From Vigna angularis (Eukaryota > Streptophyta > Magnoliopsida > Fabales > Fabaceae), in NCBI RefSeq assembly GCF_016808095.1, contig NC_068974.1, positions 9,362,001 to 9,426,000 of the forward strand: a stretch of DNA of 64,000 nt. The letters are read 5' to 3'. The stretch's first letter is position 1. Each line of letters begins with the position of its first letter. Both the position numbers and the translations under genes were made by a program. Positions 34,207 to 35,541 of the stretch are shown one piece after another. The notes under the pieces are model-generated. The model was not told the DNA's origin. It saw only the letters and a program-made list of their open reading frames with translations, and ran no database searches.

Positions 34207-34763
34207 TTAAAATCGAAAGAATTCACGAGCTGGTTGTGGTGGTCTAAGGGAGAGCTCTGTTGAGGGAGCTCTGGTACGAAAAGTCACGAGCGGAGGCGGA
34301 GGAATCTCTGTTTCTGGGTCGATTATGATGGGAATGGGGAAGAGGTCCAACAGCCTCGGTGCCCTCATTACCACCCAGCCATTTTCTTTCAAAAAAAAAA
34401 AAAAAAAAAAAATTCTGTTAATAATAATAAAAAAAAAAAAAAAAAAAGAAAATTCAATAAAAGTGAGATCTGATGAGAGCTCTTACCGTACATATACAGC
34501 GGCAGTTGTGAAAACTGAGTGCCAGTGGGGTCTATCTCCGCTTGCCAGCGCCTGACCCGATTGCCGTGGTTGTTGAACCAGCAGTGCACGTTGTATTCGC
34601 TGGCATCTCCGTAGGTCCTTAGTCGAGACGTGATCTCGACGACTTGCGCTCGGCTTGGATGAGTGACCCCATAGTTGAAGATGTTGGTCATCATCTTGAC
34701 CTGATCATCTGTTGGGCGCCACCGCTGACTCGTGTATCTCTCGATTTCCATCTCACTCATCAT
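34207..34763 (-). CDS. WUSCHEL-related homeobox (WOX)-like gene inside a retroelement, antisense
   Basis: Predicted 151-residue protein from two coding exons, 34763-34487 and 34385-34207, joined across a 101-bp GT-AG intron (donor GTAAGAG, acceptor GAAAG) that keeps frame. Residues about 13-75 form a WOX-type homeodomain: RWRPTDDQ at helix 1, ITSRLRTYG at helix 2 (as in WUS-clade ITARLRxYG), and NVHCWFNNHGNR at the recognition helix with the W-F-x-N-H signature. After the intron, LLDLFPIP (about 104-111) resembles the WUS-box TLPLFP and STELSLRP (134-141) resembles the EAR-like repressor motif of WUS. WOX proteins are nuclear transcription factors of stem-cell and organ development. No stops or shifts interrupt it. 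It has its own upstream promoter-like region. The protein is shorter than typical WUS (about 290 residues) and has unusual Asn-Asn in WFNNH and Gly after His. Expression and DNA binding are unknown. Confidence 0.82.
34386..34486 (-). other. intron between WOX-like coding exons
   Basis: Minus strand begins GTAAGAGCT and ends in a long T-run followed by GAAAG. T-rich as plant introns are; the exon phases (1/2) agree. Confidence 0.7.
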
Positions 34764-34768
34764 ATTTT

Positions 34769-35541
34769 CTAAATAGAAAAACAAAAACATAAAAAATAAA
34801 AAATAAAAAAAACAGAAAAATAAAAAGCATAAAAAAAAAAAAAAAAAATTAATTTAGTTCTGTGTTTTCTTTATTATTTCTTGTTTACTTTGTCCTGTCT
34901 GTCCTTGATTGTTTCTGTATTTGGTCTCAGATCTGTTTCACGGTCCTTGCAAAAGGGTCTTAAACGGATCTACGTCCAATTGTTCTTGTCCTTATTGTTC
35001 TTGTATATTCAGTTTCTGTGTTTTATTTTTAAGTGGGGTACGTGGCGTTGTTCTACCCGATTGTCTCTGCAATACCTTCAATCGAAGGGAGATTAACGTC
35101 TGGTTTCCAGCCGATATACCCCTTAAGTTTTAAGACAATTGTGTTTTATGTGTTTAAGTTTTTTTCAGTTTCAGAAAAATAAAGCAGGAAAAAAAGAAGA
35201 AGAAAGGGAGAGCAGGCAAGGGGAAAGCTGAGAAAGCACAAGAAAATAACAATGAAAAGAAAGCAGGAAATGAAAGATCTAAAAGCTTAAAGAGAATCAG
35301 AGCAAGCAAGCAGAGAGAAAAGGAGATCCTTAGTGAAGAAAGACTTACCTGGAGAAGTAGGCTGGCAGAGAAGCTCCTCGCCGATCTCGGACTCTTCAGA
35401 AGGCACGGTGGCAGAGGCTCCGCGCAGACTCCAGATGCTCAGAAGAGAGAGGAGGAGAGAGGATTAGAGAGAAGAGAGGAGTAGAGAGAGAGCAGGGAAG
35501 TCAGAAATGTTGCTCGACGCTGAGGAGGTACCCTTTTATAG
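34769..35541 (-). promoter_or_regulatory. WOX-like gene: TATA box, CT-rich leader exon and 5'-UTR intron
   Basis: On the minus strand CTATAAAAG (35541-35533) is a good TATA box. About 30 bases downstream comes a CT-rich leader of roughly 160 bases, ending at 35349 in CCAG with the strong donor GTAAGTC. A matching acceptor, TTTTCTATTTAG, is at 34769-34780, leaving AAAAT before the ATG at 34763. That gives a 580-bp leader intron. This layout is typical of an independent plant Pol II gene rather than part of the retroelement transcript. It is deduced by eye from splice signals. Confidence 0.65.

What the first reader, a model, noticed from the sequence alone, without database searches (positions are those of the whole stretch)
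34207..35541. A spliced WOX-like homeobox gene on the antisense strand of a pol-less gypsy retroelement
Seen: minus-strand exons joined by good GT-AG signals give an uninterrupted 151-residue protein with a WOX-type homeodomain (ITSRLRTYG, NVHCWFNNH), a WUS-box-like LLDLFPIP and an EAR-like STELSLRP, in the order found in WUS-clade proteins. A TATA box, a CT-rich leader exon and a 580-bp leader intron lie upstream on the same strand. Known: extra antisense ORFs occur in some plant Ty3/gypsy elements. Inference: a retroelement captured a complete stem-cell regulator gene with introns (so at DNA level or from an antisense transcript) and may spread it as a mobile, possibly repressive or dominant-negative WOX. 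If the family is multicopy and the ORF is conserved, this would be a retroelement-encoded developmental factor.
Basis: partly seen in the sequence, partly recalled or inferred. Interest (0 to 1): 0.93.

Follow-up and report, generated by a model that had tools for sequence, protein, structure and literature searches.

The report
Retroelement carrying an antisense WOX gene
In the adzuki bean, a family of virus-like jumping elements carries, back to front, a working-looking copy of a plant stem-cell regulator gene that natural selection has kept more intact than the element's own structural gene, so it is probably a tool of the element and not junk.

Summary
Two minus-strand exons (34763-34487, 34385-34207) encode a 151-aa protein with a WOX homeodomain (PF00046 E 2.6e-6; WUSCHEL 6ry3 E 7.6e-11), a WUS-box-like and an EAR-like motif. 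The host is Vigna angularis. The gene lies antisense, 3' of gag, in gypsy-type LTR elements without room for pol; my hand-picked lists hold 206 distinct homeodomain places. LTR pairs, seen in 10 of 12 close copies, are 99.68-100% identical. Both exons, the GT donor and the AG acceptor are present in 39 of 39 copies read (2 with a stop in exon 2). dN/dS is 0.02-0.23, against 1.25-4.4 in wrong frames; in 15 pairs of elements WOX has 0.08-0.19 and gag 0.51-0.69. The transcription unit (33968-35648) is a module shared by otherwise different elements. The WUS base readers R38, N90 and R94 are kept. The window copy is a rearranged, gag-frameshifted relic. WOX amplification between LTRs in V. marina and V. 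riukiuensis is already in print (2023 meeting report); its section does not mention adzuki, antisense layout, splicing, gag or selection. Most likely: an element-encoded, repressor-type regulator with its own antisense promoter. Expression and target are untested.

The parts
34207..34385 (-). WOX coding exon 2: WUS-box-like LLDLFPIP and EAR-like STELSLRP, stop codon 34209-34207
   Evidence: present in 39 of 39 copies, in-frame stop in 2 of 39 (L011, L044)
34386..34486 (-). coding intron; GT donor and AG acceptor kept in 39 of 39 copies, length varies
34487..34768 (-). WOX coding exon 1 with start codon 34763-34761 and the homeodomain
   Evidence: no stop in 39 of 39 copies
34769..35348 (-). 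leader intron
   Evidence: CAGGTAAG found upstream of the start codon in 31 of 39 copies, counted from the rows
35349..35513 (-). CT-rich leader exon (its start is assumed, about 27 nt after the TATA box start)
35533..35540 (-). TATA box TATAAAAG of the antisense promoter; TATAAA lies 169-239 nt upstream of CAGGTAAG in 28 of 39 copies
   Evidence: counted from its rows
33968..35648 (-). module shared with otherwise different elements: promoter, leader, both introns, coding exons, 3' region (with short unaligned gaps)
   Evidence: window 31891-37694 against 7 of the 8 divergent loci
32225..33558 (+). gag (PF03732), split in this copy over two frames, 32225-32713 and 32692-33558
37174..37693 (+). 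first 520 bp of the 3' LTR
37694..39861 (-). inverted LTR (about 37699-39861), followed on the minus strand by AATTT and a cut-off primer binding site; 39341-39861 mirrors 37174-37693
31780..31890 (+). 111-bp target piece, repeated at 39862-39972 on the other side of the insert
39862..39972 (+). second copy of the 111-bp target piece

Best explanation
The window holds a rearranged, probably immobile copy of a non-autonomous (gag-only) Ty3/gypsy-type LTR retrotransposon family of Vigna. As an accessory gene antisense to gag, between gag and the 3' LTR, the family carries a complete WOX transcription unit: TATA promoter, CT-rich leader, leader intron, homeodomain exon, small intron, and an exon with WUS-box-like and EAR-like motifs. 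Because its introns are antisense to the element's genomic RNA, they are not spliced out of it and survive retrotransposition. SHOWN by sequence: anatomy, multicopy status, young insertions, conserved splice sites, purifying selection on the protein stronger than on gag in the elements compared, occurrence of the unit as a module in elements with different gags. INFERRED: that it is transcribed and translated; that the introns survive for the reason given; that the protein is a nuclear repressor binding TGA-type sites (base-reading residues R38, N90 and R94 of WUS are kept, Q89 is N in the window protein); and that it helps the element by tuning transcription in meristem or germ-line cells, of the element itself or of the host stem-cell programme.
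For: Family and fold: (the 11 best Foldseek PDB hits are all STENOFOLIA or WUS homeodomains). Copies: one search reports 297 matches and lists 150 rows, 9 with a stop; add others, 206 distinct in my lists. Element: LTR pairs 99.68-100% in 10 of 12 close 10-kb loci; a PBS motif TGGCGCCG[T/C]TGC[C/T]GGGGACC in 12 of 12, 2.0-2.8 kb after the LTR start in the 8 where both are seen (the LTR's own end was not seen); gag on the strand opposite to WOX in 17 of 20 loci; of 91 gag-II match rows 34 have a listed WOX 894-1205 bp 3' of gag, 34 of 34 on the opposite strand, 0 on the 5' side, 0-1 after shifting positions. Splice sites 39 of 39. dN/dS: close x divergent copies 0.077 (exon 1) and 0.136 (exon 2); all three groupings 0.02-0.23, upper bootstrap bounds 0.057-0.405; wrong frames 1.25-4.4; gag-II 0.51-0.69 against WOX 0.08-0.19 in the same 15 pairs of six elements. 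Module limits. Residue mapping.
Against: No RNA or protein evidence was available. The copies read were picked from a list ranked by similarity to the window protein, mostly over exon 1, which biases exon-1 dN downward; exon 2 was hardly used for the ranking and still gives 0.14-0.23. WUS residues K92, A93 and Y86 are replaced (G, N, C), so binding could differ or be weak. The AlphaFold tail is unstructured (pLDDT below 60 from about residue 81 on), so the tail motifs rest on sequence alone. A trans-acting protein from many non-autonomous copies invites free-riding, so constraint on each copy needs some cis benefit that I cannot show. The search for TGAA-type sites in the LTRs was unconvincing: single TGAA in excess in the LTR rest (336 against 296.6, sd 15.4), not clearly in the first 150 bp or the leader; tandem and TTAATGG sites not in clear excess anywhere, inverted sites 31 against 20.3 in the LTR rest (5 of 100 shuffles as high). 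57 of 91 gag-II rows had no listed WOX, which the incomplete lists cannot interpret. In 3 of 20 loci no gag was found.
Confidence: 0.8

Rival explanations
1. Passive capture: the WOX gene was trapped once and merely hitch-hikes on an element mobilised by a helper, with no benefit to anyone.
For: The close elements have no room for pol and are very young, so many identical copies need no selection; 2 of 39 copies have a stop in exon 2; in the family-C search 12 of the first 35 rows have a stop.
Against: Between element lineages with group dS of 0.14-0.88 the reading frame is kept, dN/dS 0.02-0.23, third positions carry 72% and 63% of the close x divergent differences, wrong frames give above 1; introns vary in length while splice sites do not.
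Confidence: 0.08
2. Repeated capture from a host WOX paralogue: selection acted in the host gene, and elements with different gags took it up independently.
For: Close and divergent copies share only the WOX unit 33968-35648, not gag or the 3' region (7 divergent loci); the donor was not found.
Against: Within the close group, whose members share LTR start, parts of the 5' leader and the 3' region, exon 2 still has dN/dS 0.23, so selection went on inside the elements. The homeodomain tree separates the Vigna retro-type families from canonical WOX with support 96 (six Arabidopsis sequences there were recalled from memory).
Confidence: 0.25
3. The function is in the antisense RNA (double-stranded RNA with the genomic RNA, self-silencing or copy-number control), not in the protein.
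For: Proposed for plant antisense ORFs in the review PMC7264820.
Against: Constraint is on amino acids: dN far below dS; exon 1 has no indel against the window in 39 of 39 copies, while the intron length varies. Exon 2 does have indels of whole codons in part of the copies.
Confidence: 0.1
4. Ordinary expansion of the host WOX gene family, as genome papers have read it.
For: The V. reflexo-pilosa genome paper lists WUSCHEL-related homeobox proteins among significantly expanded families (PMC10357499, passages).
Against: Copies lie between LTRs and beside gag at a fixed distance, with a PBS motif, and are listed on all 11 large contigs C1-C11.
Confidence: 0.02

Closest known systems
LTR-amplified WOX genes of Vigna marina and V. 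riukiuensis (K. Naito, in meeting report PMC10714607, Mob DNA 2023)
   Same: WOX genes in many copies (more than 1000 in V. riukiuensis), mostly surrounded by identical LTRs with TSDs; I infer the same or a sister element family
   Different: Two other species; presented as a burst affecting gene content. The section (read whole) does not mention adzuki, gag, antisense layout, introns, own promoter, selection or residues. The preprint that it cites is not held, so more may be there
Antisense accessory ORFs of Tat/Retand-type elements: maize Grande gene23, Silene Retand ORF4, Phaseolus PvRetro13 ORF2 (PMC7264820, PMC11963269)
   Same: Antisense to gag-pol, just before the 3' LTR; own promoter and nuclear product (Grande); some carry DNA-related domains (TRP28, SMC)
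   Different: Those lie 3' of pol, and the 2020 review says no clear similarities to other proteins had been described; here the ORF is a recognisable WOX gene with introns and the close elements have no room for pol
Phalaenopsis Gypsy elements with an m6A RNA demethylase ORF (PMC9289625, passages)
   Same: A host-type functional domain gained by a plant Ty3/gypsy lineage and kept through subfamily divergence
   Different: An enzyme in a 25-kb element with gag and pol; here a transcription factor, antisense and spliced, in a gag-only element
Gag-only terminal-repeat retrotransposons (TR-GAG; recalled, from no call)
   Same: LTRs, PBS and gag without pol, mobilised in trans
   Different: Those are not known to me to carry a developmental regulator
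WUSCHEL / WUS-clade WOX proteins
   Same: Homeodomain fold, R38/N90/R94 equivalents, order homeodomain - WUS-box - EAR-like
   Different: Shorter (151 aa) than the canonical WOX proteins fetched (191-256 aa); Q89 to N, K92 to G, A93 to N, Y86 to C in the window protein; EAR-like motif degenerate (ELSLRP; mostly ELSLRL in families B and C)

Membership tests
WOX (WUSCHEL-related homeobox) protein family | WOX-type homeodomain | tested here: met
   PF00046 above cut-off; best PDB sequence hits WUSCHEL and STENOFOLIA; Foldseek best 11 hits WUS/STF for the relative P0008
WOX (WUSCHEL-related homeobox) protein family | WUS-box (TLxLFPxx, motif recalled) | tested here: inconclusive
   LLDLFPIP here: all but the first T; TLDLFPIP in most of family C; dN/dS 0.05-0.13 over the motif
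WOX (WUSCHEL-related homeobox) protein family | EAR-like motif (LxLxL, recalled) | tested here: inconclusive
   ELSLRP here, ELSLRL in most of families B and C
WOX (WUSCHEL-related homeobox) protein family | base-reading residues R38, Q89, N90, R94 of WUS | tested here: inconclusive
   R, N, R kept in the window protein; Q89 is N in it and in most of family A, Q in B and C
WOX (WUSCHEL-related homeobox) protein family | nesting inside the canonical WOX tree | tested here: inconclusive
   retro-type families split from canonical WOX with support 96; neighbour clade weak (77), 60 columns, six recalled sequences
LTR retrotransposon (Ty3/gypsy type) | paired LTRs in direct orientation | tested here: met
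   10 of 12 close 10-kb loci, 99.68-100% identity; not met in the rearranged window copy; no such pair flanking WOX seen in the 8 divergent loci, whose ends may lie outside the stretches fetched
LTR retrotransposon (Ty3/gypsy type) | primer binding site after the 5' LTR | tested here: met
   motif in 12 of 12 close loci; 0 of 8 divergent loci, which may not reach their 5' end; the LTR end itself not seen
LTR retrotransposon (Ty3/gypsy type) | gag of Retrotrans_gag type | tested here: met
   PF03732 4.5e-17 in the window, 1.4e-15 in L041 and 4.9e-13 in L046; below cut-off in L036 and L031
LTR retrotransposon (Ty3/gypsy type) | target-site duplication | tested here: inconclusive
   the outer 3' ends of the young copies lie outside the loci fetched; the window copy has a 111-bp repeat, not a short TSD
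Autonomous Tat/Retand element with antisense ORF | pol (RT, RNase H, integrase) between gag and the antisense ORF | tested here: not met
   0.9-1.2 kb between gag and the WOX homeodomain exon leaves no room in 34 gag-II copies and in the loci read; copies without a listed WOX were not tested

The most novel reading that the evidence does not exclude
A retrotransposon family has turned a plant stem-cell transcription factor into an accessory gene of its own, the plant counterpart of retroviral regulatory proteins. Expressed from an antisense promoter in meristem or germ-line precursor cells, the mini-WOX competes with or mimics host WUS/WOX at TGA-type sites, keeping the cell in, or the element active in, the lineage that leads to seed. 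Each successful element lineage must keep the WOX, and the gene travels between element families as a cassette.
Probability: 0.35. Interest if true: 0.92.

Novelty: new variant of a known kind. Interest (0 to 1): 0.72.

Why it matters
What antisense accessory ORFs do in plant LTR elements is an open question, partly because they had no clear relatives (PMC7264820). Here one is a member of a very well-studied plant stem-cell factor family, with DNA-contact residues and assays known from WUS, and with a selection signature stronger than that of gag. That makes the question testable. It also warns that WOX expansions reported in Vigna genomes (as in PMC10357499) may be retroelement genes and not host genes, and it offers natural WOX variants with altered recognition helices.

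Tried and rejected
Self-regulation through WUS-type sites in the LTR: TGAA, TGAATGAA/T, TTAATGG, tandem and inverted sites were counted in 8 elements against 100 shuffles; single TGAA in the LTR rest was in clear excess and inverted sites there weakly so, and I do not build on it. Donor gene: the homeodomain tree gives no firm donor; the search for canonical host WOX genes in the same genome did not complete. Annotated protein names such as 'WUSCHEL-related homeobox 4' are no help for orthology. NCBIfam gave nothing useful. No tRNA and no Rfam match in the window. Autonomous partner: not sought further for the same reason. Papers: passages only of PMC5389050, PMC7203112, PMC9289625, PMC12077395, PMC12822460, PMC10357499, PMC9577371; outline, abstract and passages of PMC11963269; parts 1 and 2 of 3 of PMC7264820; passages and section 7 whole of PMC10714607. 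Ten paper searches gave the prior art named above and, as far as their listings show, no paper on an antisense, spliced or selected retroelement WOX; preprints and most subscription journals are not held.

Full report
OBSERVATION. The minus strand of 34207-35541 reads as described: TATA box at 35540, CT-rich leader, CAG|GTAAGT donor at 35349/35348, acceptor before 34768, ATG at 34763, donor TACG|GTAAGAG after 34487, acceptor before 34385 and a stop at 34209-34207, giving an open 151-aa protein. It is a WOX protein: PF00046 E 2.6e-6 above the curated cut-off; the best solved sequences are WUSCHEL (6ry3, 7.6e-11) and STENOFOLIA (6wig, 1e-10). A model of the relative P0008 has 49 residues at pLDDT 90 or more, in the homeodomain, and a tail without confident structure; its 11 best PDB matches are all WUS or STENOFOLIA homeodomains.

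HOST AND COPY NUMBER. The protein search gave 65 clusters at E <= 1 (270 member sequences, my sum), named from Vigna angularis throughout. A profile search added Vigna radiata (P0067) and V. umbellata (P0070, P0073). Contig lengths of the window's genome equal those printed for adzuki proteins. In that 448-Mb genome the window protein has 297 matches among 150 scored candidates of 1023; 150 rows are listed, 9 with a stop inside. The lists are incomplete: the window's own place is missing from that one and appears in the DNA search. From I picked, by hand, places of the A type and its near kin, 206 distinct. Two further families, B and C, are also dispersed (in C 12 of the first 35 rows have a stop), and a fourth, D, is seen in proteins P0081 and P0082.

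THE ELEMENT. I read 30 loci of 3.3 kb (L001-L030) and 20 of 10 kb (L031-L050). Twelve of the latter are the same places as twelve of the former, so with the window there are 39 copies: 31 of a close group (A1, window included) and 8 divergent (A2). Of the twelve close 10-kb loci, 10 show a direct LTR pair of 99.68-100% identity over the 1230-2071 bp visible, and 12 hold TGGCGCCG[T/C]TGC[C/T]GGGGACC in the 5' region, 2.0-2.8 kb after the LTR start in the 8 where both are seen; the far end of the LTR was not seen. Such a PBS is what I recall from Athila/Tat-type elements; without reverse transcriptase the lineage cannot be tested. Gag is found in 17 of 20 loci, on the strand opposite to WOX in all 17. 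There are three gag types: I (window, L041), II (L036) and III (L046); type II hits Pfam only below the cut-off. Of 91 gag-II match rows in the genome (89 candidates scored of 3315), 34 have a listed WOX 894-1205 bp 3' of gag, 34 of 34 on the opposite strand, none on the 5' side, and 0-1 after five shifts of position. That leaves no room for pol between them; rows without a listed WOX were not tested.

THE WINDOW COPY. It is a relic. Gag is split over two frames. The insert begins within the 5' leader at 31891. The 3' LTR stops after 520 bp and is followed by an inverted LTR whose end meets a cut-off PBS. The flanks carry a 111-bp repeat instead of a short target-site duplication. Its WOX reading frame is intact all the same.

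A MODULE. Over 31891-37694 of the window, the 7 divergent loci compared (L049 was left out) are alike only between 33968 and 35648, which is the WOX unit with promoter, leader, introns and 3' region. Donor and acceptor of the coding intron are kept in 39 of 39 copies although the intron length varies; CAGGTAAG, the leader donor, is found in 31 of 39 and TATAAA lies 169-239 nt upstream of it in 28 of 39 (counted from its rows). Being antisense, the introns should not be removed from the element's genomic RNA; this is my explanation for their survival.

SELECTION. Both exons were found in 39 of 39 copies, with no stop in exon 1 and one stop in exon 2 of L011 and of L044. Nei-Gojobori dN/dS, exon 1 and exon 2: A1 x A2 0.077 (bootstrap 0.037-0.134) and 0.136 (0.074-0.224); within A1 0.023 (0.003-0.057) and 0.229 (0.129-0.343); within A2 0.135 (0.072-0.231) and 0.203 (0.090-0.405). 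The wrong frames give 1.25-4.4, and third positions carry 72% and 63% of the A1 x A2 differences. In 15 pairs of six elements gag-II has 0.51-0.69 and WOX 0.08-0.19 (one of the six gags has a stop). Caveat: the copies were taken from a list ranked by similarity to the window protein, and most matches covered only exon 1; exon 2 is thus the fairer measure.

HOW IT MAY WORK. The WUS crystal paper names R38, Q89, N90 and R94 as base readers (PMC7203112, passages). By the alignment the window protein keeps R, N and R and has N for Q89; K92, A93 and Y86 become G, N and C. I therefore expect binding to a TGA-type core with altered neighbours. The LLDLFPIP and ELSLRP motifs suggest a repressor (motif meanings recalled). 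A protein kept under such constraint while gag drifts faster must pay its way for the element, most likely by changing transcription in cells that lead to seed. Whether the target is the LTR or the host stem-cell programme is open; my count of WUS-type sites in the LTR was not convincing.

ORIGIN. On 60 homeodomain columns the retro-type families split from canonical WOX with support 96; the nearest canonical clade is not resolved, and six Arabidopsis sequences were recalled from memory. One capture followed by exchange between elements is the simplest reading; repeated capture is not excluded.

WHAT IS KNOWN. A 2023 meeting report states that WOX genes are amplified in Vigna marina and V. riukiuensis, mostly between identical LTRs with TSDs (PMC10714607, section 7 read whole; the cited preprint is not held). 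The V. reflexo-pilosa genome paper lists WOX among expanded families without naming an element in the passages I saw (PMC10357499). A 2020 review describes antisense ORFs in Grande, Retand and PvRetro13 and says that no clear similarities to other proteins had been described (PMC7264820); the 2025 Retand survey has no occurrence of 'homeodomain' or 'WUS' in its main text (PMC11963269). So the phenomenon is partly in print, and the antisense, spliced, promoter-bearing and selected nature is what this study adds, as far as my ten paper searches show.

CHANGES ON RECHECK. 

Noticed in passing
window 31780-31890, 37174-39972: Aberrant insertion: 5'-truncated element, partial 3' LTR followed by an inverted LTR (arms of 520-521 bp, 99.8%), and a 111-bp perfect duplication of target DNA instead of a short TSD; looks to me like end-joining of a rearranged cDNA.
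   Followed up: partly
window 41922-45167: Copia-type element: perfect 300-bp direct repeats at 41922-42221 and 44868-45167 around a gag frame at 42686-44077 with Retrotran_gag_2 and zinc knuckles.
   Followed up: no
window 41307-41777 and 25220-25429: Tandem repeats of about 116 bp and of 35 bp.
   Followed up: no
L049 4352-9167: A second young LTR pair (963 bp, 99.9%) around a frame that by eye resembles the copia gag of the window begins right at the WOX tail exon, a nested insertion.
   Followed up: no
L043, L045, L046, L047, L048 (upstream of WOX): Five of the eight divergent WOX loci carry large tandem arrays upstream of WOX, that is in the 3' region of the element, as described for Retand elements (PMC11963269 passages).
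   Followed up: no
PMC10357499: The WOX family expansion reported for Vigna reflexo-pilosa may be this retroelement and not host genes; worth a re-annotation.
   Followed up: partly
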